Of a stretch of 64,000 bases of DNA, positions 7,596 through 63,911 are shown one piece after another. Both the position numbers and the translations under genes were made by a program. The notes under the pieces were generated by a model. The model was not told the DNA's origin. It saw nothing but the letters and a program-made list of their open reading frames with translations, and made no database searches. The stretch comes from Craspedostauros australis (Eukaryota > Bacillariophyta > Bacillariophyceae > Mastogloiales > Achnanthaceae): positions 248,001 to 312,000 of the forward strand of contig JAMXDE010000010.1 of the NCBI GenBank assembly GCA_026770025.1, read 5' to 3'. Within the stretch, counting starts at the first letter, position 1. Each line of letters opens with the position of its first letter.

Positions 7596-9497
7596 ATGGA
7601 AGAACCGGCCCCCCAAGCAACAGCAGCAGCAGTAAAGGCAAACGCTGGAGCCGCCGCAGATCAGATGGATGTGGAGATGGAAGAACAGCAGCAGACAGCA
7701 AACAGTGTGAACATTAGCGATGCAGAAGATCAGATGGATCCACTGCGCTGTGGACGTCCCGACGTCGTGCGGGAGGGCGATTTCGTGATCCTCGTCTTTT
7801 CGGATGGCCGTCGCACGTTCGCGCAGTGCCTCAAGCATTGGAAGGGCAAGACGGCGCCGATGAAGATCAGCAAGCGATCGTATTCCACCCACGCTCTCAT
7901 CGGTTTGCCGTACGGTACCGTGCTCGAGCTTGGCCACCACACCCTCAAAGTTCTGTCGGAGGGGGAGGGGTTGATTCCAGAATATCGTTCTTCCGCAGCG
8001 GCGGGGGCAGCAGATGCATCGGCAGCAACCAAAGAGGCAGGCGACAGAAGCAATGGACACAACAACAACAACAGCAACAACGATAACAACGCATTGGAAG
8101 ATGATGAAGCTCGAGCAGATGACAGCACATTCCCCAAACCATCGCCAACGACAGGGACGACGACCACCACGACAACGGCAGAATCTGCGAACCAATTGAA
8201 GGACAACAGAAACCTGGTGGATAACAACCAGGCACAGACGCTGTGCCAGCAATCCTTGAAGAAGCTTCGAGAAGCTGGTGCGGAAGGTTCCGAGATCGTT
8301 AGCGCGTTGATCGAGAGCTCCTCCACCTTCCAAGGCAAGACGGAATTCAGCAAGGCCAAGTACATCGTCAAGAAGCAGCTCAAGTACCAGCAGCGCTGCC
8401 GCATCGTGCGATGCACAGCCGCGACCGTCTGCGAGACCTACTTCATGAAGAATCCACGTGTCCTCATGAATATGCGAGAAGATTCCTTGGGTCAAATTCT
8501 CAGCTATTCCAACGTCAGCGCGGGTTGCCAGTGCCTGGTCTTCGATACCGTCATGGGTGTCGTTGCGTGCGCCTTGGCGCAGCGCATGGGCGGCTACGGA
8601 CGCATCCTGTCCATCTACACGGGTCAGCAACCGCCCTTCAATGAACTGGCGCAGCGTTTCAATCTCTCCTTCGCAGAAGCCAATTCCGTTCGTTTCGTGC
8701 ACGCCAGCGATGCTTTCAACGATGACAAGAATCCTTATGGTGGAGATGACGACCACGCAATCGAAAGAGAAGAAGCAAAATCTGCAGCAACCACAGACGC
8801 AATGGAACCAGAAACAGAGATCGACGCTGAGAAAGAAGACCGCGAACGCCTCGACTGGCCTTGTCCATTGCAAGAGCACACGCGCAACTACATCCTCAAC
8901 GAGATGCCCAAGGAAAAGAGCCGCGACGAATTCCTCTACAAACGCTGCGCACGCTTCGTCCGCAAACTGACACGATATTCGCCGCTGGAATCCTGCGAAG
9001 GGCTCAGATCGCGCCCTTGTGACTCCCTCGTCATCGTCACGCGCTTCGAACCAACATCGACCTTGCTCGATCTTCTCAAGTATCTGTCCCCGTCTTCGCC
9101 CTTCGTCATTTACTGCGAGTACATCGAACCGTTGACGGATTGCTTCCGCGCGTTGCAAAAACAATCGCTGGCAATCAACATCCGGCTGATGGACACCTGG
9201 ATGCGTGAGTACCAGATGCTGCCTGGCCGGACGCATCCCAGCATGAACATGAGCCAGAGTGGTGGCTTCATCTTGACTGGAATCAAGTTGTGTCCCAAAA
9301 CAGGACACAACGACCTCGATGCGGAGGTGCTGAAAGAGCTACGGTCCACCATCGGCGGTCGTAGAGGCCGAGCGAACGGCGGTAAGCGGCCGAAGAAGGT
9401 CGATGATGCAAGAAAGCAGTCGTCATCGAAACGACGGGGACCGGATGGCGACAGCGCAGGAGGCAAAACGAATGAAAGCAAACGTTCCAAGACGTAG
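7596..9497 (+). CDS. TRM6: tRNA (adenine-58-N1)-methyltransferase non-catalytic subunit TRM6
   Basis: A single-exon gene of 633 residues. The N-terminal half begins VREGDFVILVFSDGRR and continues with the beta-rich TRM6/GCD10 domain. The diagnostic block follows from about residue 248: GKTEFSKAKYIVKKQ, then CETYFMKNPRVLMNMREDSL, GQILSYSNVSAG and a Rossmann-like region. In other eukaryotes TRM6 lacks the SAM site and forms a heterotetramer with catalytic TRM61 to make m1A58 in tRNAs, including initiator tRNA. Two low-complexity inserts are diatom-like padding: an Ala/Asn/Asp/Thr-rich one near residues 130-215 and an acidic one near 376-420. The Lys/Arg-rich C-terminus (about 590-633) could bind tRNA or direct nuclear import. 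The long antisense open frame across it is a shadow. Confidence 0.92.
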   Translation: MEEPAPQATAAAVKANAGAAADQMDVEMEEQQQTANSVNISDAEDQMDPLRCGRPDVVREGDFVILVFSDGRRTFAQCLKHWKGKTAPMKISKRSYSTHALIGLPYGTVLELGHHTLKVLSEGEGLIPEYRSSAAAGAADASAATKEAGDRSNGHNNNNSNNDNNALEDDEARADDSTFPKPSPTTGTTTTTTTAESANQLKDNRNLVDNNQAQTLCQQSLKKLREAGAEGSEIVSALIESSSTFQGKTEFSKAKYIVKKQLKYQQRCRIVRCTAATVCETYFMKNPRVLMNMREDSLGQILSYSNVSAGCQCLVFDTVMGVVACALAQRMGGYGRILSIYTGQQPPFNELAQRFNLSFAEANSVRFVHASDAFNDDKNPYGGDDDHAIEREEAKSAATTDAMEPETEIDAEKEDRERLDWPCPLQEHTRNYILNEMPKEKSRDEFLYKRCARFVRKLTRYSPLESCEGLRSRPCDSLVIVTRFEPTSTLLDLLKYLSPSSPFVIYCEYIEPLTDCFRALQKQSLAINIRLMDTWMREYQMLPGRTHPSMNMSQSGGFILTGIKLCPKTGHNDLDAEVLKELRSTIGGRRGRANGGKRPKKVDDARKQSSSKRRGPDGDSAGGKTNESKRSKT

Positions 9498-11279: not shown

Positions 11280-12346
11280 ACATACTCGTCCTCCATGGCA
11301 TAGTGCGAGCAGGTGACTCCACCGATGTTCAAAGAGCTCTGATCTCCAGAGCGCGCTGTTGCGTCAATCGAACAAGGCGACAGCTCATGAGACGGTGCTC
11401 CTCTTCTCGTTGTTGCTCTTGCCGCCAGAGAGTGCCGCCATTGACGATGGGTCTGATGGAGAGGTGGACCAAAAATGAATGGGGTGGAACCTGTGGTACC
11501 ATACAAATACGAACTGATCGCTCCCATGGACGACAAAGCGTACGTTCTGGCGGAGCGGGCCACAACAGCAACATCTCCACAGGGTACGATGTCGTCGAGC
11601 AAAAGGTGGACATTGCCGGAATCGAACCGGCGACCTTATGCATGCTAAGCATACGCGCTGCCAACTGCGCCAAACGCCCCCACTGTTGTGGTTGTACTCG
11701 TGCTGGAAGCATTTTGCAAAACCGATTTTAAGTATCCTACACATACGCCATTGACCATTCCCCCAGTGGCCAAGGCACGAGCAGCATGGGAGGACACAAG
11801 CAATCCTCCAAAGCCCTCTTGGCGACACTTGATGACGCACTGCTTTGGTGGATCATGGAAATGCGTGTTGTACAGGAACGAAGCATGAACAATGATGGGA
11901 GCAGTTCAAGGCCATCCAGAGAGCAATAGCTCGTTGACCACTCCGACCTGGTGATGAATGATGTCTCCTCGAGTGACACGAGCTAGTGTGTGCTGCTCTA
12001 GGGTATTATACGTCACAAGTGCATGTTATCAGTATGTACTGACATGCATAATTGCTCTAGTATGGTATGAGAATGATAACAGGATGAGAAGAGCATGGCA
12101 AGAGCATGGCAACGTACACAAGTACTCTGTCATATGACTACTCTTGTTGGCAAGTTCCATGGACGGACACCTTGCGATCGTGGAAGATGGTGTTGGTTGA
12201 TAGTCGTTTTGTTTGCTATTTCATTACATTGGCACTCCAATCCTCTTGGTGTCCGTTCTCTTGCCTGATGCTCTTGGCACGTCTGTCTGTTTTGTAGATT
12301 GGGTCTCTGACTATGAGTCAGTACGTGAGATGCTCTCTCGCTGCTA

Positions 12347-26888: not shown

Positions 26889-29800
26889 ATGAGTGCGACG
26901 GCAGCCGGCCAAACGGCAAGAGAGGAGTCAGCAAGTAGGCTAAACGATGCTTGCGGAGATGTGATGAACACGAAGACCGACAACGAAATCAGAGTGGTCT
27001 TCCAGAATGCGTCTCAAATCCCTCAACACGCATACCAACAGAAGAACGAGGAGATCATCGAATTCATACGGCGGTCCCAATTGGATGTTCTGACAATGGC
27101 GGAGACCAACCTGCGATGGAACCACGTTCAGCCCGCCGACCAATGGGAAGAAAGGGTTCGTGGGAAGGTCAAGCGATCTAAACACGTGTTCTCGTATAAC
27201 CTACATGAGCCAGGCCGAGAACCATGTCTCTACGGAGGCACGGGCATTGTTCTGACCGAACAGCTGGCTGCAAGAACATTCAACTTCGGCGTGGACACCA
27301 CGGGGTTGGGGAGATGGTCATGGTCAAGAGTGGAAGGCAAGCGGAACAAGACGGTGAGAGTAATTGCGGCCTACAGGCCCTGCAAGTCCACCTCAGGGGA
27401 CACCACAGTGTGGAACCAACAAGCGCATGCACTACAAGCTCAAGGCAGAACCGAGGACCCACACGAAGCGTGGATAAAGGATCTCCAACATCAAGTGAGA
27501 GAATGGACGGTGTCAGGTGACTCGATAGTTCTCGGAGTTGATCTTAACGAAGATACGGATGAGGGGAGCACAGCTCAGGCCCTTACAGCCGTCGGACTGA
27601 AGAACGCAGTCCTGGAACGCATCGGTGACGGCGCCAGAAGGGCCACACAACAGCGGAACCAAACCAATACGCCCATCGACGCGATTTATGTGTCGGAAGG
27701 TGTCGAGATCGTACGCGCAGGCTACTCAGGGTTTGGCGAGGCCATTCCCTCAGACCACAGGGCGATCTGGGTGGACCTCAGCTTTCGCCAGTTACTGGGG
27801 ATTGGGGTCCAACGAGTGAAATCCACTTCGCCAAGACGGCTGGTGCTTAGCAACCCCAACGTGGTGCGCAGGTACAACGAGATGGTTCTTCAAGAGTACG
27901 GGAAACACAACGTGCACCAGCGGGCCATGCATCTGTTCACCAAAGCCAAGGCACAGGGATGGCAAATAAGCCCCGCCCAAAGACGGGCCTTCGATGGGCT
28001 GATGACCCAGATCTACCAAATCAGACGATATGCTGAAAAGCGTAGTCGAAAGTTGACCATGGGAGAAGTTGCCTGGTCACCCGAGATGCAGACCGCCCGA
28101 CACCAGGTGCGGCACTGGTCCATTGAGGTGAAACACTGGCGAGGAGTGAAGACCAGCTCGTCTCTCAGAGCTCGCCTTCGGCTACAGGCCGGTAGCGAGG
28201 GGGCGGAGTCCTTGGAAGCGGCCTTACAAGCCCAAGCAGAGGCCTATAAAGCCTACTACCGGCTGAAGAAGGAGCACAAGCAGGCCAGACACAACCACCT
28301 GGTCGAACTTGCCCGACAGCGGCACGACAGCCGTGAGCAGGAGTATGAAACAGCCATCAAGACTCTCATGAACCGGGAGCGTCAACGTGAACAGGCCGGA
28401 CGCCTCCGGGCAGTATTCGGTAGAGGCAAGTCCATGACTACGAAGGTCCTCTTTACAGACGAAGACGGAGCGATCCACGAGTGCACGGAACAAGACGAAA
28501 TTGTGGAGGCGTGCATCATTGAGAACAAGCGCAGATTCTCGCAAGCCAAGGATACCCCGTGCATGACAGGAAGAGGCCGGCAGGTGATGGACAAGATCTG
28601 GAACCCGGCGACGGCCACGGAGCTTCTGCGAGGGGATTCCCGGTCGCAATTCGACCACCCGCTCTGGAGCTGTCTCATGCAGGCCTTGGAGCCAGTGTCG
28701 TACCAAACGGACGAGTTGACGGTGAAAGAACATGTCAAAGCGTGGCGCAAGCAGACGGAGCTAACCAACTCCGAGCCTAGTGGACCCCATTTCGGCCACT
28801 ACAAGGCGGCATCATACGACACCACCCTCTCCGAAGTGGACATGGCCATGCGGGAAATACCATATCAGACTGGTTTCTCCCCGATAGAATGGCAGCGCAT
28901 CACGGATGTGGAGATCCTGAAGAAGGCCCAAGTTTTCAACATTGAAAAAATGAGGACTATACAACTGATGGACTCACAGTTCAACTTGAACAATAAGCGT
29001 CTGGGGAAACAGATGATGGCCACAGCGGAAGCGCAAGGGTGGCTCTCGGACTTCCAATTCGGGAGTCGCAAGCGGCGATCAGCAATCAGCGCAGCCTTGA
29101 ACAAGCAGCTGACGATCGACATCGGCAAGCAAAAGAAAGTGCCAATATGGTTCTGTTCTAACGACGCCAAGTTGTGCTATGACCGTATCGTGCCCAACTT
29201 TGCGGCCACCGCGATGATGGCGGCAGGTGCCAATCCAGCGGCGACGAGGTGCATGTTCCAAACGCTACGGGACGCAAGTCACCGCATCAGTACGGCCTTT
29301 GGAGTATCCAATAGGTCCTATCAAAGCGGGCCGGATTGCAGTATGCACGGCATAGGACAAGGCAACGGAGCGGGGCCCGCCATATGGGCGGTGATCAGCT
29401 CGGTCATGTTCAAAGCCATGAAGCTTCGGGGACACAAGCAGACCATCGAATACCCCGAAGGGACCGGTGCATTTGACTTACTGGGATCGGCCTTTGTGAA
29501 CGATACCGACCTGGTGACCCTCGGCATTTGGGACAGCACTACCCCCGCGAGCTTCGCCCGGATGGTGCAAGACTGGAGCGGCCTCTTGAGGGTTACAGGT
29601 GGTGCTATTGTTCCCTCGAAGTCGGCGTGGTGGTCCATGAGGCCACGGTTCGAGGAAGGTCGGTGGACGTGGGACGACGGGGATGAGCAAGAGGAAATCG
29701 TCATCGTAGATGGGGACGGCGCCAACAGCGCGATCCCTCGCAAGACGATTACCGAACCTCTGTTCACCCTCGGCGTTTTCCTGACGTTTGACGGCGTCGA

Positions 29801-32800
29801 TGACCAGCAGGTCCAGGTGCTGCGGAAGAAGTCGGAGGACTTCGCGGGACGGATGCGTCACGCTCAACTGTCTCCGGCAGACGCCAAGTCGGCCCTCACA
29901 CTGCGATTCATCAAGTCCATTGAGTACGTGATGGGAGTTTCGCAACTCACGCGCCATCAGTGGCGGCGCATCATGGCCCCAGCACTCTTGGCGGCCCTCC
30001 CAAAGATGGGATGCGCAAGAACGTTCCCACGAGACTTGGTGTACGCTCCAGTCTCCCTCGGGGGATTGGGCGTCCCAAATCCGGTCCACCGGCAAGTGAT
30101 CAAGCAACTGCAATTGCTTTTCGACGAGGTGCATGGCGACACGTCCACAGGGCGAATGCTCGTGTGCTCCATACAGGCGATCAAGGCAGAGCTGGGTATC
30201 GGAGGTTCTCTGTTCTCACAACCGTTCGACCAACTGCACCAGTGCGTGACGCCCTGCTGGGTTAAAGGTCTGTGGCAACAACTCCAGGACACAGGGATCG
30301 GAGTCATTGAGACCACGGAATCGATTGCCCTACAGCGTGACGGGGACGAGTTCCTCGTCCTGATGTGGCTGCGTGCGGGGGTGAAAGGCGCCACGCTCTA
30401 TCACCTGAACATGTGCCGACGACAGCTCGGGGTCGCACGAATGTCCGACATTGTTACTGCCGCGGGATCTGCGCTGGTGGTCGGGGCCATGGAAGGTCAA
30501 GACGTTCCAGTCCGAGGACAGCTGTGGGCTCGATGGCCGGATCGGCTGCCCAGTGGATGGTGGAAAGAGTGGCGGAGGTGGTGCAAGTCCTTGTGTTACC
30601 GAGGACGCATGCTCCAGAGCCCTCTCAGGAAGTGGTTCGAGGACGATGGATCGTGGCAGTGGTGGAAGGCAGCCTTGACTGAGGAGATTTACGACGCATA
30701 TTCGGACCCTGTACGGGTGTTTGTACTGGTGACCCGACGTCGGACAAGGCAGGCCAAGTACCGGCTACAAGGATCCGTCCAGGTTCTCCCGGAGCTAATG
30801 CATCGAGTGTCGGTCGTTATTACCGAACAAGGGATCACTTGGGACCGAAGGATCGGTCTACATCGCGAGCCTGATGCACAGCCATCGAGCTACGATCCGG
30901 TGGAAGACCTCGGAGGGGATTCCGATTTTGGCCAGATGCTGGAGGCGGCGAGACACCACAAGCTGGTGGTGGTGAGCGACGGGTCGTTCAAGGATGCAAG
31001 GGGCACTTCGTGCTCCATCATGTTCGACCTCCGTTCCCAACAACACGTATTAGCGCACGCTAAATCTCTAACAATAGCGACACCCGTCGACCAATCAGAA
31101 ATCTCCACTTTTCTTACCTTTTCCGTTCCGAACGGAAATTTTGGTCGAAAATCCGTTGTGTCAAATTTGTGTCGCATTTCGCGTCGCAGGAATCGTTTTC
31201 CCGTCAAACACAGTTCCAAAATGTCGCGGAAATTGATTTCTTGCCAAGATGGACCAATCTGCCCAATCAGGACAGACTTGGATCTTGGGTGTGACACGTG
31301 CGAATCTTGCCATGACCTTCTCAAGTGAATACGATCAATCGTGTGATCGTACTACTAGCAACATCGTGAGAAGACGTAATTCACAACACGGGCTATCGCG
31401 GTGTTTTGTTCATTGACCTTTTGCACCTCATCTTCACGCAGTAACACGCACATTTGTCGTGTTGTCTCCGTGTTAATTTTACTTGCAATTGCATGAGATC
31501 ATGTCATGCCTCTCTCATGCTCACAGTTCTCAAGAAACCATCTTGTGAGCTCGCCCGCATTCCAACTACCATACGAATAATACAGTAAACAAACACTCTC
31601 CTCACCAACAACAACGACTTGATCACTCTACGTTCTCGGTGCGGAATCCCATCCTTGATTTCGTTCTAACAACACGTGGCGTGCAACACTTTTGTGCCAG
31701 GCCCAGCGTCAGTACACAGCTCTTACCGCAGCGAACTTGCCGGAATCTGGGCTTCATTGGAAATGCTTGCCATGATTCCGGAACTGGACGAAGCGTGCAC
31801 CGTGACGCTGGCACTCGACGGCCTTCAGGCCCTCCGTCAAGCCCAATCCGACACCATTAGCCCAGGCCAACGCGACTGGGACATCCTTGTCGAAATACGC
31901 CGGTTGAGGCAACGCCTACGGGCAACCCTCAAATGGGAGTGGGTCAGAGGACACCAAGACGACACGGGTAAGGACCTTACGATGCTGGAGAAGCTCAATG
32001 TGGAGCGCGACAAACGCGCCAAGGCGTTCTGGGGAGCGACAGTCCCCCGGCGACGAGCACGACAGTGGTCATCAGCAACAGACCGATGGACCCTCACAGT
32101 CAGCGATCAACACTACTCCCACGTGGGTCAAAGTGAGCTCTACAAGACACTGCAGGCGTCTGACTCTCTTCGATACTGGAAGAAGAAGTTCGAGTGGACG
32201 AGGGGTGCGACAAGACAGGTCGACTGGGAAGTGTACCAAGGCGCTCGAGCAGCAAGGAATAACCAGGCCACGTCGAAATTTGTTACGAAGTGGTCCTCCG
32301 GTTTTGTGGGCGTCGGGCGAAAGATGCAGCAGATGGGCCAGCAAGAGTCCTCCACCTGCCAGTTCTGTGGCGCCGAGGAGACGACACAGCACGTCCTGCG
32401 CTGCAAGGAGCACGAGACAGCGTGGAGCCTTGCGACTGAGGAACTTATCGATCGCATGGTGACTATTGGGTCAGCCCCAAGGCTGGTGTCAGGAATGAGG
32501 GTAGGAATGGCCCGCTGGCGGCGACGCCAGAAGCCGCAGAGCACCCAAGGAGACATCGGGTGGTACCCCTTGTTGCTGGGGTTCCTACACAAGGATTGGC
32601 GAAAACAGCAGTCTCAATGGATGGAGCATCACGAATGCGTCTTCCCGGACGCGGCAGCATGGACGAAGGAAGTGATCCGGTGGGTCTGGAAGGTTCCCTG
32701 GAGTGTTTGGGTGGCGCGCAACAAGAAGGTGCACGACGGCGAGCAGCACCCGTCACTGGCGGAGCTGCGGCGGCAAGTGCGACGGATCGCGGCAAGCGCC

Positions 32801-36523: not shown

Positions 36524-36596
36524 GGGCGTTTGGCGCAGTTGGCAGCGCGTATGCTTAGCATGCATAAGGTCGCCGGTTCGATTCCGGCAATGTCCA
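36524..36596 (+). tRNA. tRNA-Ala(AGC), copy 2
   Basis: Identical in sequence to copy 1 and placed in the right inverted-repeat arm. Anticodon AGC, no encoded CCA, TTTT stop at 36599-36602. Confidence 0.93.
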
Positions 36597-36926
36597 CCTT
36601 TTGCTCGACGACATCGTACCCTGTGGAGATGTTGCTGTTGTAGTCCGCTCCGCCAGAACGTACGCTTTGTCCATTGGAGCGATCAGTTCGTATTTGTATG
36701 GTACCACAGGTTCCACCCCATTCATTTTTGGTCCACCTCTCCATCAGACCCATCGTCAATGGCGGCACTCTCTGGCGGCAAGAGCAACAACGAGAAGAGG
36801 AGCATCGTCTCATGAGCCGTCACCTTGTTCGATTGACGCAACAGCGCGCTCTGGAGATCAGAGCTCTTTGAACATCGGTGGAGTCACCTGCTCGCACTAT
36901 GCCATGGAGGACGAGTATATGCATCT

Positions 36927-38580
36927 GGAAAGTTGTCCTCACCCGCAGCCAGCAGGTATGTGCAAGTTCTAGAGAGAGCTGAGACATTCTCTGTTATGTC
37001 ACGAGCTCTTGCATGCTCTGCTCAGCTGCCCTGGTCCCTGAATGATGGTGAGGTGGAGTGAAGCGCTGTGCTGTACTCAGAACACACGGGGTGCTTTGGT
37101 TGCCCACGTGCGACAGGATGGTACATGAGGAATATCTTCGCACACGGTGAAACCGATCCGAGAGTTTCAATCGCAGCTTGGCACGTCAGCCTATTCGTTC
37201 TACCACCACCATCACCACCAAACGAAACACGGCATCGCAGTTTTTTCGTGGTTGGTGTTAGGCGTACGAAGGTGCCGCGGCAGTGCTCCGACTTGCGATT
37301 TTTCGATCGTCTTCTACATGCAGGTGTTCATCCATCGGTAAGGAAAATGTAACACGAAGAGCAAGGGGGAGGTCGGCGAGGCGGAGAATCTGTTTCTACG
37401 AGCAAAACAGAACGCACCCAGTGCGCATTTCTCAGACTACTGTTGTGCTTGGTCCGCGGGGTCGGAAGACAAGATGGTCTGGCGAGATTTCGAATTGTTC
37501 CAACAGGACAAACCAATACGGTCCAAAATTACGGTAAAACATGGACATTGCCGGAATCGAACCGGCGACCTTATGCATGCTAAGCATACGCGCTACCAAC
37601 TGCGCCAAACGCCCCAGTCTCGTACTAAGCTGTTGCCAATATCAAAGCAATCCGAAAATAAATACTTATCATGTGTTGCGAGCTGAGAACGACGACAATG
37701 TCATCTCTTCCAACAGTAGGTACGCGGCCCAGACACAGACAATATATGTTAATACTACTCCGATCAAACGTACATTTTATCCTTGATCACCATCTATATC
37801 CCCATCTCACACAACAGTGTAAAACCAATGAACAATGTGGAAGGGGATGCCATTGCCGTGACAATAAAGGAGTCCGCTTCGAGGTTGTGCAGCTGATAGA
37901 GGTGTATGGTACGTGTACTCGTACGCATAATGTTTGGTGGGCTGATGATGCTGCCGGTGCCGTCCTTTTGTGGAGGGCGCCGCCCACAGGTGGAGCATTC
38001 GTAGATTTCTACCGAGGTCATTGGTGGTGATCATGTTTGCCACGCTTTTTGCTGGTGGTTGACATGTTGGTGGCGTTGATGTCGATACTGGTTCGTGTTG
38101 TTGTGGATTTCGGAATGGCTTGTGTATTCTCGCAGTATCATGCTGATGCGCCGCTTCCAGAAATAGTCCAAGTCTAGTTGATCGGTGTTTGGTGTGCCGT
38201 TCCGTCACAGTTGGGCAACGGTAGTCCCAGCAACGCTGTTCGCTGATAGGAGGTTAAGCAGGCGGAAACTTTGTTGACTCATTCGGTATTGCTTCGTCAT
38301 CACCAATGCACTTGGGCTGTTGCCAAGGTTTTGATCACGTTGTGGCTACTGTCATCCTCGTTCCATTGCCTGATGAATGAACGAGGCCACGCAATGACGC
38401 TCCTACTTGTCAAGAGCATACTGGAGTCCTGTATGAACAATATGTATCTGTGCTCGTCGTCGTCATCCATGATCTGCCAAGAGCGTTGCTTGCCAGGACG
38501 GAACTGGACACCAACATCTCTCAACTGTTCAAGAGCATTCCCATACAGTGCGCCCTCCCGCTTCTACAACTTCCATCTCA
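36927..38580. other. Intergenic region with a tRNA gene and a possible small minus-strand coding fragment
   Basis: Apart from the tRNA at 37542 I can support no gene. The minus-strand frame 38300-38524 and its upstream extension (to about 38560) read like a protein (for example SWQIMDDDDEHRYILFIQDS), with no family match and no clear exon partners. It lies just downstream of the YeeZ-like gene, in the same orientation. Confidence 0.35.
37542..37614 (-). tRNA. tRNA-Ala(AGC), copy 3
   Basis: Same cloverleaf as the other copies, with one base change in the D loop (GGTA for GGCA). Anticodon AGC. TTTT stop at 37536-37539. The flanks are unlike those of copies 1 and 2. Confidence 0.93.
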
Positions 38581-40870: not shown

Positions 40871-40943
40871 GGGCGTTTGGCGCAGTTGGTAGCGCGTATG
40901 CTTAGCATGCATAAGGTCGCCGGTTCGATTCCGGCAATGTCCA
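40871..40943 (+). tRNA. tRNA-Ala(AGC), copy 4
   Basis: Identical to copy 3, including the GGTA D loop. Anticodon AGC, discriminator A, no encoded CCA. Confidence 0.93.
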
Positions 40944-57897: not shown

Positions 57898-60800
57898 ATG
57901 GCGTCTTCGATGTCTCTTGGTGCGGACACGAGCACGTCATTGATGGGAGATTACGCGAGCGCCCAGCTGCGGCTCGCCGTGCCGGACGTTCCATCGACAA
58001 CAACGGATCAGCACTCCGTCGCGTGGCGCATTCGCGATACGGCCGATACGCTGGTCATCAACCGCGAGCAACCGATCAAGGGAGGGTATCGTCCTGCTGC
58101 GCGTCTCGGACAGGTGGATCTCTCCACCAGCTTCGACGTTGAGGCATCCTTGTCCGATCTCCGCAGCGAGAAAGCATCGATCATCCGATCTGCGTTCGAA
58201 ATTGCCGCGGGGGTGGTTCTGGGGAACAGGCTGCGATCGGACTCCGACGATGATAACGACAATGCCGACGATGACGACAGTGCAGGGGAGAGTGCGAATC
58301 TGCCCGTCGTTTTGGGGGATGCCGACAGCATTGACAAGCTGCGATCGCAGAGCCTCATCCGCGCCTTTGACAACAAGGAATGGGCCAAGCGCAGACCGGC
58401 CAAGCCATCTGCCTCCAGCGCGGGCAAACCGACTTCGAAGCCATCCAAGGCCGATGCGAAGAAGCGCGCGTTGGCAGGTTCCCCCTCTCCTTCACTGTCG
58501 CATTCGAAAATCAGACTGAAAGTCAAGGCCAAGACGAAATCGAAGACCGCACCTGGCGTCACCACCACCGGCGTCGGCACGAAAGGCAAGACAGGCGACA
58601 CGACCAACGTGAACAAGAACAAGAAAATGAAGACAGGGATCAAAGCAAAGAAACCAGCCGTCACCGTGGGTGGGAAGAAGCAGGCCAAGCCGAAGTTCAC
58701 ACGCAACACCCCCGCAAGTTCGGCGGCAGCGCTGGACTCGAGGTTGACAAGTTCGCGCGCCATCTTGTGCGCCGCAGCCAATGTGGCATTTGCAACGCTG
58801 ACGCCATCGCTGCCTGGACTAGAGATCGAGGCAGTCGACGTGCCTCAAAACCCGAACAAGCCCGCTGTATCCGGCCCGCGGAAGTGCTCCACTGTCAGCA
58901 ACATGGGGGCCGTCCTGGTTGAGGCACAGACCGTCGGCCAGAGGGTGGAGTCTGTTGCGACCAATGCCGCAAGGCGAGCCGCGCGCCGATACCTCTATCG
59001 CAAGCAAAATCTCCAGGCCTCAAGATCAAGCGCGTATCTGTTCCCGTTGCGGAATCTATTCAGAAGGAAGCAACTCGCCAGCAGGCCTTGGGGTGACGGC
59101 AACGGAAACGCTGACGACGAGCCGCCGCTCTTGATTGACCAAGATGAGACATATTCTCCATCCGAGGACTCTGTTACCCATACCTGGATCAACCACTGTC
59201 TACCTCGATTCTTGTCCATTCTCGAGAAGGGATCCGGCCATGCTTTCTACCACGACGCACATTGGAACACGCGACATGGACGCATCGCCAACCTTCTGCA
59301 AGATCTGTCCAGAGGCGACGACGAATACTTCGGACCGCACCTCATCGTGTGCACAGAACCAGATCTTGGTCGGTTTTATCAGGAGTTTCGTGGGATAAAC
59401 AGCCACCTGCGACTCATCAACATGATTAATATGAACGACATGCGGGCGATGAAGTACGTTGGGACTGATGCCGATCGCAAGGCGCTTCGCAAACATTTCC
59501 CGAAGGCAACAGGATTGCCAGATGCAGCATTTCATGTGATCATCACGTCGTACTCAAACCTCCTCAAGGACTACCTCCATTTGTGCCAAATGCCATTCGA
59601 GGTCGTGATCTTGGATGATGGCGCCTCATGGATGTCGGCCGCGCAGGGCGACCCTAACTCACCAATCGGTCAACTGTGGGAGAATGCCATATGGAGCAAG
59701 AGTGACAAGCAGATCGGGCTGGCAGGCACGCGCGACAAGAAATGGGACTTCTCCGTGGATTCCATCAACACCTCCCTCATCAAGGAGTCATGGATCGGTT
59801 TGACAGCCCGTCATCGGATCCTCACTTCGTCCACCACGCATATCCTGCAACGCAGCACGGCTGAATTGATTCCCGTGTCTGGCTTAGTCAGCTTTATCTA
59901 CCCGCACTACGCCGACGTCGTCCGAGAGGAATGGGACAGAAGCCGTATCTCGAATGACGCGGCGAGCATGGAACATTTCCGTCGATTGCTCACCAAGTCA
60001 TGTGTCATCCACGCCCCAGAATCCGACGATCAGGACATGTACAAACTGGCCATGAAGGCGCTGACTGGCAAGCTCGGGAACTCGGATAGGTCCAAGGATC
60101 CGTCCGTCCCCGATATCATAGCGGATGAGAAGTTCGTGTCAGATGGCAAGGTGGCCTACTCTCGTCGGCTGGCGTTGCAATGGCTCGGCACTCAGCTGGA
60201 GAAATCGTGGCTGCGGTACGAGTTGGGATCGGTGGACTTTCAGTTCATTCTCAACGTGATGAAAGTCTCGTCTCACTATGGCCACATCTGTGACGAGGTT
60301 ATCACGGCATCGATGACAACCTCTACTGGCGCGACGGGACAGGTGGCCGGTTCGCAGGCCTATCGCCTTGCGCTTCGTTGCGGTCGTCAGTTTGGTTCAG
60401 AGCAGGGATTGAGGCAGCATCTGTCCGCCCTGCACGCACCGCCCGGGACCTGGCTGTGTCGCACGTGCGGCAGCGATTGCATCACCAGCCAGGCTCGCAC
60501 CCACCACGAACGATCGTGCGGTCAGCCGCTCGCGGGCGTAGCCGATCCCGCTGCTCTGGGTGTGGGCAGTGACGGCAAAGTCGGCGCATCGAAATCTTCA
60601 TCTGGTGAGCGCAGCGGTCCAAAGCAGTCAGGTCAGGCCGGCGTCGTCGGCAAGAAAAAGGGGGCGAAGCCGAAGCAGGCTTCCGCAGCCTCCGCGGAAG
60701 AAAAGGATCCAGATGGATCCATCCGCGTGCCTGGTTATCGCGGAGTGTGGATCGATCCTGCCGGAAAGCACTTTGTGAAAATCCAAGGCAAGCGCTTTTG

Positions 60801-62220
60801 TGACGAAGGCTCGGACCAAGTCCTGCTGTTCGACGGTGCCGAAGATGCAGCGAAGCGTCACGACAGGGAACTGAAGAAGACAGGAATTAAGAAGGGCGAA
60901 TTCAACTACAAGTCGGACGGAAGTCGCATCGTCTACGAAGACGTCACGACATCATCCACGACTGGCCTCGGGGGCAGCGCCAGCAGTGTCGTGCCCGCTT
61001 TGTCTGTCATCAACATCAAGGACCTTCCATCCCACGTCAAGCCGCTCTTGCGCGATCCACGGCAAACCTCAAGGACGGGTGGTAACTCAAAGCGCCACGT
61101 GTACGCGTACAGGGGAGTCTGCCGGCAAGCACGCAAGGGACATGACCGTTGGCAAAGCCAAATCTCGTTCATGGGAGTCAATCACTATTTGGGGACCTTC
61201 GATTCTGAGTGGGATGCAGCTGCTATCTATGCTTGGGCCCACCTTATTCTGTATGGTGAGGAGGCTACAAAACAGGCTCAGAGAGAAGGAGAAGAAGCCG
61301 CCGCAGCCTACGAAAAAGAGAAGAAGATGATCGAGGAGGGCAAGGTGCCCGAACCGCAAGCGAAGGAGACCAAGAAGCGAAAGCTGCCGAAAAAGAAGGA
61401 AGTCGAGAAGCGTCCGACGCCAAGCACGCCAGCAGAACCGGTCGAAAAGCCAACGAAGAAGAAGAAACTTAGCACAGACGATCCCAAGCCCAAATCCGAA
61501 AGTATGGTCGGTGTCACACAGAAGGCGACTGGAAAGGCGCCAATCCTCGCACCAAGGACGGCCTACAAGGAGATGGACGACGACAAACTGACTCAGGAGG
61601 CCACTCTGCGCTTGCTGGCTGCGCATGAAAACGGCTACTGCACAACAGAAATTCCTTTGCCAGCAGGCATGGATCCGGTCCGCGGGTGTATTCCTCCCGG
61701 CTCCATCGAGTCGACACCGGGATGTGCCATGCTCCTAGGCCTCTCCCCGGCCCTATTCGGATGGGATTCGACAGCGTACATGGCGGGGCAATTTTTCGAG
61801 TCAGAAGACGAGGCGTCGGAGGTCGCGGACATTCTGTCATCTGAATACGGCCAAGGAGGCACCAACGAGAGGTTCCGAACATTGATGCAAGGGTCGACTT
61901 GTGTCATCGGGCGCGCCAACGAACGAACGCAACGCCTGTATGGAGCGCTTGGGTTGGGCAACGTCGCCGTCGGTGGTTCCGTCGGTCCCATCGATTGCCA
62001 CATTGGCGGTTCCGTCCAATCGTGCGACGAAACTTCGGCATGCATTCGCTTCGTGAAGACGAAGAAGGGTGAATTCCAACTGTTGGCTTTGTCGGAGGAC
62101 GATGTTGTCACGTTGAATGGCGAGAAGATTACGCCCGACATGGGCACATTCACGCTCTCGTCAGAGGACGTGTGCACGGTTGGCGGGAGGGTCTTTGCAT
62201 TCGTTCTGCCTGACGATTGA
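57898..62220 (+). CDS. Multidomain nuclear protein: degenerate SNF2-like domain, zinc finger, two AP2 domains, FHA
   Basis: 1440 residues from the ATG at 57898; the frame continues upstream to 57817 without an ATG, so an extra 5' exon is possible. Residues about 160-270 are Lys-rich (nuclear type). Residues about 427-725 align by eye with the SNF2 ATPase core: PHLIVCTEPDLGRFYQEF, DRKALRKHF, FHVIITSYSNLLKDYL and VVILDDGASWM. The Walker A lysine loop (DEMGLGKT in SNF2) is replaced by HDAHWNTRHGR and DEGH by DDGA, so ATPase activity is unlikely. A zinc finger follows near 826-873 (QFGSEQGLRQHLSALH, then CRTCGSDCITSQARTHHERS). Two AP2-type DNA-binding domains start YRGVWIDPAGKHFVK (946) and YRGVCRQARKGHDRWQSQIS (1067). 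An FHA-like phosphopeptide domain forms the end (CVIGRANERTQRL ... TLNGEKITPDMG). It is probably a chromatin-linked transcription regulator. Confidence 0.85.
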   Translation: MASSMSLGADTSTSLMGDYASAQLRLAVPDVPSTTTDQHSVAWRIRDTADTLVINREQPIKGGYRPAARLGQVDLSTSFDVEASLSDLRSEKASIIRSAFEIAAGVVLGNRLRSDSDDDNDNADDDDSAGESANLPVVLGDADSIDKLRSQSLIRAFDNKEWAKRRPAKPSASSAGKPTSKPSKADAKKRALAGSPSPSLSHSKIRLKVKAKTKSKTAPGVTTTGVGTKGKTGDTTNVNKNKKMKTGIKAKKPAVTVGGKKQAKPKFTRNTPASSAAALDSRLTSSRAILCAAANVAFATLTPSLPGLEIEAVDVPQNPNKPAVSGPRKCSTVSNMGAVLVEAQTVGQRVESVATNAARRAARRYLYRKQNLQASRSSAYLFPLRNLFRRKQLASRPWGDGNGNADDEPPLLIDQDETYSPSEDSVTHTWINHCLPRFLSILEKGSGHAFYHDAHWNTRHGRIANLLQDLSRGDDEYFGPHLIVCTEPDLGRFYQEFRGINSHLRLINMINMNDMRAMKYVGTDADRKALRKHFPKATGLPDAAFHVIITSYSNLLKDYLHLCQMPFEVVILDDGASWMSAAQGDPNSPIGQLWENAIWSKSDKQIGLAGTRDKKWDFSVDSINTSLIKESWIGLTARHRILTSSTTHILQRSTAELIPVSGLVSFIYPHYADVVREEWDRSRISNDAASMEHFRRLLTKSCVIHAPESDDQDMYKLAMKALTGKLGNSDRSKDPSVPDIIADEKFVSDGKVAYSRRLALQWLGTQLEKSWLRYELGSVDFQFILNVMKVSSHYGHICDEVITASMTTSTGATGQVAGSQAYRLALRCGRQFGSEQGLRQHLSALHAPPGTWLCRTCGSDCITSQARTHHERSCGQPLAGVADPAALGVGSDGKVGASKSSSGERSGPKQSGQAGVVGKKKGAKPKQASAASAEEKDPDGSIRVPGYRGVWIDPAGKHFVKIQGKRFCDEGSDQVLLFDGAEDAAKRHDRELKKTGIKKGEFNYKSDGSRIVYEDVTTSSTTGLGGSASSVVPALSVINIKDLPSHVKPLLRDPRQTSRTGGNSKRHVYAYRGVCRQARKGHDRWQSQISFMGVNHYLGTFDSEWDAAAIYAWAHLILYGEEATKQAQREGEEAAAAYEKEKKMIEEGKVPEPQAKETKKRKLPKKKEVEKRPTPSTPAEPVEKPTKKKKLSTDDPKPKSESMVGVTQKATGKAPILAPRTAYKEMDDDKLTQEATLRLLAAHENGYCTTEIPLPAGMDPVRGCIPPGSIESTPGCAMLLGLSPALFGWDSTAYMAGQFFESEDEASEVADILSSEYGQGGTNERFRTLMQGSTCVIGRANERTQRLYGALGLGNVAVGGSVGPIDCHIGGSVQSCDETSACIRFVKTKKGEFQLLALSEDDVVTLNGEKITPDMGTFTLSSEDVCTVGGRVFAFVLPDD

Positions 62221-62362: not shown

Positions 62363-62501
62363 TTAGTTTTGGACGTTCCTCGTATCTGTGCCACCATCCA
62401 CATTGTTGCCATCACCATTGGTGTTGTTGGTATTGTTGTTGATATTAGCGCTGCGATCTGCGGCACCACCACCGTTACCATCTCCGCGTTCGTCTTCGTG
62501 T

Positions 62502-62533
<32 letters not shown>

Positions 62534-63911
62534 TGTGGCTCTTTTGCTTCCGTAAATCTGATCCCATTCAACGTATTGCACCAGATCCGCAGGCCCGACG
62601 CTTGGCTTCATGCCCTTCAGACTGCGACGGAAGTGCTTGAAGGTGATCGGAGGCACGTTGTCTATGTTGACCTCCAAGGCCTTTGGTCCTAGCTGCCGAA
62701 TCGGACCCATCGCGGCATCCGTGCACAATGCCTTCAGATCCGCGCCGCTGTACCCGTTGGTTTCTTTGGCCAGCCGATCCACATCCTGTCCCGACAGCTT
62801 GTGCTTGTTCTTCTCCAGCATGTGGTTCAGCAGTGTCGCTCGGTCCTGTTCGCTGGGCAGCGGAATGTAAAGCCGCTTGACGAAACGACGCCGTGCTGCT
62901 TCGTCCAGTTCCTGAGGACGATTCGTCGCGCCAATCACCAGCACACGACCTTGGCCGCTGGTGCCTGTTCCATCCAACTGGACCAGAAACTCCGTCTTGA
63001 TGCGGCGGCTTGCCTCATTCTCATCTGATTTACGTTGGGTGAGCAACGAATCGATCTCGTCGATGAAGACGACCGCTGGTTCACGGTACGCGGCAACGGC
63101 AAACAAGGTCCGCACGAGTTTTTCACCCTCGCCGATCCATTTGCTGGTCAGCGACGAACTCGAGATGCTGAAGAACGTCGCGCCACTTTCGTGCGCGATG
63201 GCCTTTCCAATCAGCGTCTTTCCCGTTCCTGTTTTGCTTGCGCGACAAGAAATGAGGCGGTGAGTGACGAGGAGTACGTACGTGCGCACGCACACATGAT
63301 CAGAAACGGACAGCAGCAAGAGAAGGAAAAGCGAATGTGCAAAGAAATGAGTACGTGGGTGAATGTGTGGGTGAATGTGTGAGTGAACGAATGGATGCGG
63401 TCCATGCCAGAGATGGCAACGATGGTGTCATTGATGCTGGAGTGACAGAAGGCGACCGCTGAATGGCGAGACAGACGCCTCGGAACGTACCTGGCGGTCC
63501 GTACAGCAATAGCCCATTTGGTGCACGACGCAGCCCTGTGAATAGATCGGGTCGCTTCATCGGCCAGCACACGACTTCCTGGACGGTCTGCTTGGCGTCT
63601 TCCAACCCAGCAATATCATCAAAAGTGACGGACTCGCCACTTTCCTGGATCTCATTGATGATCTTCTTGACGAGTGCCTTGTCCAGGTGCTGCAGCTCCT
63701 CTGGCAATTCCTCGTCATCGTCATCATTGTTGCCATTCGACACGGTAACGTTGGTGTTCTGCTTCGTGCCCCCTCCGCTGGAGCCAGACCCCGTAGTGTT
63801 GGATCTTCCCATCGTGTTGGTTGCGTTGACAGCTTTGGGTGCTTTTCGAAGACCGCCACCACCAGACTTTGGAATGGTGGAGCCTCCATTCGGATGGTTG
63901 GCTCCATTAGC
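62363..63911 (-). CDS. FIGNL1: Fidgetin-like 1 AAA ATPase (FIGNL1), 5' end beyond the window
   Basis: Exons 63491-63911 and 62363-63228 join in phase across a 262-bp intron, giving 428 visible residues; the first exon(s) lie past the right edge, as an AG acceptor precedes 63911. The junction rebuilds Walker [21 protein letters not shown]. Other marks are [56 protein letters not shown] (pore loop), [11 protein letters not shown] (Walker B), [34 protein letters not shown] (sensor and Arg fingers) and [19 protein letters not shown]. The set fits FIGNL1 better than spastin, katanin or Vps4. FIGNL1 removes RAD51 from DNA in recombination in animals and plants. Oddly, after the usual end (WDQIYG) there is a 50-residue tail of Asp, then Gly/Asn. 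It converges on the gene at 57898 with a 142-bp gap. Confidence 0.9.

What the first reader, a model, noticed from the sequence alone, without database searches (positions are those of the whole stretch)
57898..62220. Fusion of a dead SNF2-like core with a zinc finger, two AP2 domains and an FHA domain
SNF2 remodellers, AP2 DNA-binding domains and FHA phosphopeptide readers are each common, but I know of no described protein with this order. The SNF2-like core keeps its scaffold blocks while both nucleotide-binding motifs are replaced, so it may have become a protein-interaction module steered to DNA by AP2 and to phosphorylated partners by FHA. This would be a new type of chromatin regulator, perhaps limited to diatoms.
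Basis: partly seen in the sequence, partly recalled or inferred. Interest (0 to 1): 0.8.

Follow-up and report, generated by a model that had tools for sequence, protein, structure and literature searches.

The report
Diatom dead-motor SNF2–AP2–FHA protein family
A large diatom protein joins half of a switched-off chromatin-remodelling motor to zinc fingers, two plant-type DNA-binding domains and an FHA domain, a combination found in many diatoms that I could not find described.

Summary
Observation confirmed. Window 57898-62220 (+) encodes one 1440-aa protein in an unbroken frame. The order SNF2-like core, zinc fingers, AP2, AP2, FHA is real and shared: 66 of 139 aligned members (window included) carry all five blocks; the rest are partial, many of them short predictions. 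Ten of 11 transcript-derived members carry all five. The 17 rows with a legible organism name are all diatoms.

The own genome has SWR1; no canonical INO80 was found by exon-wise search.

Best reading: a motorless adaptor placed on DNA by AP2 and zinc fingers, with pseudo-lobe and FHA as docking surfaces. Function untested. Nearest analogue: Arabidopsis MOM1.

The parts
57898..62220 (+). whole gene, 1440 aa, one open frame, ATG to TGA
58693..58806 (+). conserved N-terminal block, residues 266-303 (KFTRNTPASS...SRAILCAAANVAFATLTP), fold unknown
59158..60099 (+). SNF2 lobe-1-like pseudo-ATPase fold, residues 421-734, closest to INO80
59251..59298 (+). former Walker A site, residues 452-467 (HDAHWNTRHGRIANLL); R459 and R462 invariant in 129/129
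59611..59628 (+). motif II equivalent, residues 572-577 (LDDGAS); D573 invariant in 133/133
60379..60519 (+). two zinc fingers, residues 828-874: first incomplete C2H2, second C2HC
60736..60912 (+). first AP2 domain, about residues 947-1005
61075..61269 (+). second AP2 domain, about residues 1060-1124, nearly fixed across diatoms
61708..62217 (+). C-terminal FHA fold with helical insert, residues 1271-1440

Best explanation
A diatom adaptor protein, most likely nuclear, that is not an ATP-driven remodeller. SHOWN: an SNF2 lobe 1, most like INO80 in sequence, without its P-loop, followed by zinc fingers, two AP2 domains and an FHA fold, kept together in many diatoms. INFERRED: AP2 pair and zinc fingers place the protein on specific DNA; the pseudo-lobe, perhaps held in a nucleotide-free shape by an R459-D573 contact, and the FHA fold dock partners there. 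It would recruit or block remodellers or transcription machinery rather than move nucleosomes itself, much as MOM1 silences without its SNF2 part.
Against: No binding, localisation or knockout data. D573 is invariant, so the pocket may still bind something. R459 = Walker Lys is my hand alignment; the profile aligner put the P-loop in a gap instead. AP2 and FHA score poorly in Pfam, and the FHA profile found no FHA in the PDB by sequence; DNA binding is inferred from family and conservation. Residues 735-815 were not folded and searched alone, so a degenerate lobe 2 is not excluded. Nuclear location was not tested.
Confidence: 0.6

Rival explanations
1. A subunit of an INO80/SWR1-type complex: the pseudo-lobe takes a place in such a complex and the AP2 domains aim the whole remodeller at genes.
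For: INO80 is the best sequence match. A 70-aa Chaetomium Ino80 stretch finds SWR1 first and this gene second in the own genome. DBINO has no match over cut-off. MCRS1, recalled as an FHA protein, is reported to co-precipitate with INO80 and NSL members (PMC6607013 passage); a likeness of this FHA to MCRS1 is recalled and untested.
Against: No interaction data. Fold scores do not separate INO80 from ALC1, ISWI or SRCAP. HSA and DBINO were not found at this gene. PAPA-1 search is uninformative by the tool's own note.
Confidence: 0.2
2. A plain sequence-specific transcription factor in which the SNF2-like lobe is an inert structural remnant.
For: MOM1 silences without its SNF2 sequences (PMC2507757 passages); AP2-2 is the most conserved part.
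Against: The lobe is 38-60% identical to seven homologues, above the N-terminus (17-41%), with invariant R459, R462 and D573: more constraint than an inert remnant would need.
Confidence: 0.15
3. A working enzyme or ligand sensor that still binds a nucleotide through D573.
For: D573 invariant in 133/133, second position acidic in 127/133.
Against: No P-loop in 129/129, no recognised lobe 2.
Confidence: 0.04
4. An artefact: neighbouring genes fused by the open frame.
For: Large, partly low-complexity linkers.
Against: Same architecture in 66 of 139 members and 10 of 11 transcript-derived members.
Confidence: 0.01

Closest known systems
INO80 chromatin-remodelling ATPase (SNF2 family)
   Same: Lobe 1 fold and best sequence profile match
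   Different: No Walker A, no recognised lobe 2, HSA/DBINO not found; zinc fingers, AP2 domains and FHA instead
Arabidopsis MOM1
   Same: Regulator with a partial SNF2 domain and lineage-shared replacements (PMC2507757 passages)
   Different: MOM1 keeps lobe 2 motifs, is CHD3-derived; no AP2 or FHA mentioned in the passages seen; sequences were not compared
AP2/ERF transcription factors, double-AP2 type (WRI1)
   Same: Two AP2 domains; AP2-2 profile matches WRI1 at E 1.1e-10
   Different: Set in a 1440-aa protein beside an SNF2-like lobe and FHA; weak in Pfam (6 of 9 AP2-1 members, best E 0.0061; 1 of 7 AP2-2 members, E 0.2)
FHA phosphothreonine-binding domains
   Different: Arg in 44/80, His in 0/79, Ser replaced by Asp in this species; helical insert

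Membership tests
SNF2-family remodeller | RecA-like lobe 1 of SNF2 type | tested here: met
SNF2-family remodeller | Walker A (GxGKT) | tested here: not met
   Arg at 459 in 129 of 129 members with a letter; no P-loop in the model
SNF2-family remodeller | Motif II DExH/Q | tested here: not met
   D573 133/133; next D 110, E 17, other 6; then G 129/133; fourth position V, A, M, F and others, not H/Q among those listed
SNF2-family remodeller | Lobe 2 with motifs IV-VI | tested here: inconclusive
   no Helicase_C in Pfam at E<=1, motif V pattern absent; residues 735-815 not folded alone
INO80 subfamily | DBINO/HSA region | tested here: inconclusive
   no match at this gene, but Pfam also nearly misses the other domains here
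AP2/ERF | AP2 sequence relationship | tested here: met
   profile E 1.7e-5 (AP2-1) and 1.1e-10 (AP2-2) against solved AP2 proteins
AP2/ERF | sequence-specific DNA binding | not testable with these tools
   needs DAP-seq or EMSA
FHA | FHA fold | tested here: met
FHA | phosphothreonine-binding residues Arg, Ser, His, Asn (recalled; placed by hand on the alignment) | tested here: not met
   Arg 44/80, Ser 67/81 (Asp here), His 0/79, Asn 77/78
C2H2/C2HC zinc finger | CxxC...H...H/C ligands | tested here: met
   second finger C854 139/139, C857 137/139, H870 139/139, C874 137/139; first finger incomplete
MOM1 | CMM2 motif and lobe 2 remnant | not tested
   MOM1 sequence was not compared

The most novel reading that the evidence does not exclude
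Diatoms replaced the INO80 motor: the ATPase was lost, and its first lobe survives without catalysis as the docking core of a sequence-specific AP2/zinc-finger regulator kept across the phylum.
Probability: 0.2. Interest if true: 0.8.

Novelty: new variant of a known kind. Interest (0 to 1): 0.6.

Why it matters
A gene with one core match in its genome, widespread in diatoms, for which my paper searches listed no description. It couples a dead remodeller lobe to DNA-binding domains, so it allows a direct test of how a remodeller core can become an adaptor. The nearly fixed second AP2 domain suggests that its DNA target can be read out and compared between distant diatoms.

Tried and rejected
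Fusion artefact: rejected by transcript-derived homologues. Active ATPase: rejected by the missing P-loop; four members with GK[ST] strings were inspected and the strings lie in the variable loop before GPHL. Sequence profile of the FHA against the PDB gave no FHA (best E 0.094, unrelated) and Pfam FHA matched 1 of 11 members (E 6.8e-4), not the window's; only the fold search settled it. Pfam on five homologues gave weak or no matches; NCBIfam none for 3 proteins. Whole-genome Pfam scans with FHA and AP2 did not pick up this gene. The third homologue search (A5) returned 12 proteins, none named as non-diatom. Homologue searches scored only the best ~7,990 candidates each and listed at most 120. 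INO80 side searches: PAPA-1 uninformative, MCRS_N one sub-cut-off match with stops, YL1_C two matches whose frames my script did not identify, DBINO one match at E 0.056 beside another SNF2 gene. R459 = Walker Lys was not confirmed by hhalign. 'Pseudo-ATPase' paper search: no paper. Papers PMC3145265, PMC6607013, PMC7596299, PMC2507757 and PMC10538959 were seen as found passages only; all others as search listings.

Full report
Gene. Window 57898-62220 (+) is one uninterrupted 1440-codon frame with coding-like third-position G+C in six of six blocks. The genome held is 74.8 Mb in 90 contigs; a query with residues 423-801 has one match in it, the gene itself. The closest named homologues are Bacillariaceae sp. 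(58%) and Cylindrotheca closterium (59%), so the window is probably a diatom's, of or near Bacillariaceae (inference).

Family. Three searches put 138 other proteins in hand (counted). Coverage of five blocks by 139 aligned members, window included: all five in 66; lobe to AP2-2 without FHA in 25; lobe, zinc fingers and AP2-1 in 21; lobe and zinc fingers in 14; zinc fingers to FHA without the lobe in 7; all but AP2-1 in 5; lobe, zinc fingers and AP2-2 only in 1. Of the 11 rows that bear MMETSP or CAMPEP transcript names (MMETSP recalled as a transcriptome project), 10 have all five blocks and one lacks AP2-1 coverage. An organism is legible in 15 of the 120 rows, in one further row (Skeletonema menzelii) and one (Thalassiosira exigua): 17 of 17 are diatoms, from pennates (Nitzschia, Cylindrotheca, Seminavis, Pseudo-nitzschia, Epithemia, Asterionellopsis, Grammatophora) to Attheya, Stephanodiscus, Skeletonema and Thalassiosira (five looked up in the taxonomy). 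Hits below the listing limit (31, 70) were not seen.

Loss of catalysis. Residue 459 is Arg in 129 of 129 members with a letter, and so is 462; W456 is kept in 125. In the model a strand ends at 453 and a helix begins at 456, which leaves no room for a P-loop. Hand alignment of HDxxWxxRHGRIANLL with the SNF2 pattern ADEMGLGKTVQSIxLL puts R459 on the Walker lysine; the profile aligner did not reproduce that, so it is a proposal. Motif II keeps D573 in 133 of 133, then D 110, E 17, other 6, then G in 129 of 133. The site that I take for motif III reads GLAG...WDF. Lobe 2 motifs were not recognised.

DNA-binding part. The C2HC ligands of the second finger are kept in 137-139 of 139; the first finger lacks the first Cys of the usual pair, while C798, H841 and H846 are invariant and C828 is kept in 130. 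AP2-1 matches ERF096 at 1.7e-5, AP2-2 matches WRI1 at 1.1e-10. Identity of this protein to seven chosen homologues: AP2-2 region 81-97%, zinc fingers 66-87%, lobe (421-600) 38-60%, AP2-1 42-53%, FHA 32-50%, N-terminus 17-41%.

INO80 question. PF00176 has 41 matches in the genome, of which 30 were fetched. Among these the frame closest to the pseudo-lobe profile (E 2.6e-10) is SWR1-type: SRCAP 3.8e-62, SWR1 2.4e-61, INO80 2.9e-40. A Chaetomium Ino80 stretch ranks that locus first (52%, E 3.1e-11) and this gene second (40%, E 1.1e-7) of eight matches. DBINO gives nothing over cut-off. HSA passes its cut-off at three places: by the SWR1 locus, by another SNF2 locus, and at one place without a fetched SNF2 neighbour, which I did not examine. 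This fits absence of canonical INO80, but a gene split by introns could be missed, and no other diatom genome was searched.

Mechanism. Shown: architecture, fold, lost P-loop, conservation. Inferred: DNA steering by AP2 and zinc fingers, docking by pseudo-lobe and FHA, a role in chromatin. The best-studied analogue is MOM1, whose partial SNF2 domain could be deleted without loss of silencing (PMC2507757, passages); I claim likeness of working, not kinship.

Print status. Searches for diatom with AP2, SNF2 and zinc finger; diatom with INO80; SNF2 with pseudo-ATPase; diatom with AP2-EREBP; Phaeodactylum with SNF2 and chromatin remodelling; diatom with AP2 domain and FHA domain; stramenopile with INO80 and SWR1 listed no paper whose title or abstract concerns this protein. 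The library is partial. Several records already name homologues 'AP2/ERF domain-containing protein'.

Noticed in passing
window 62363-63812 (-): Neighbouring AAA ATPase with AAA, AAA lid and Vps4_C domains, apparently split by an intron between two frames.
   Followed up: partly
window 26889-31328 (+): 1479-aa frame with an Exo_endo_phos domain (E 5.8e-9) in an A-rich stretch (AT skew 0.43 at 26-28 kb); could be a retrotransposon protein.
   Followed up: no
window 11605-11679, 36524-36598, 37542-37614, 40871-40943: Four tRNA-Ala (AGC) genes within 30 kb, two on each strand.
   Followed up: no
window 58693-58806 (+): Conserved N-terminal block of the family with unknown fold.
   Followed up: no
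window 7596-9497 (+): Gcd10p-family gene, E 8.9e-53.
   Followed up: no
own genome C6:2746090-2750429 (L015, L019, L053): SWR1-type remodeller; no canonical INO80 found by exon-wise search.
   Followed up: partly
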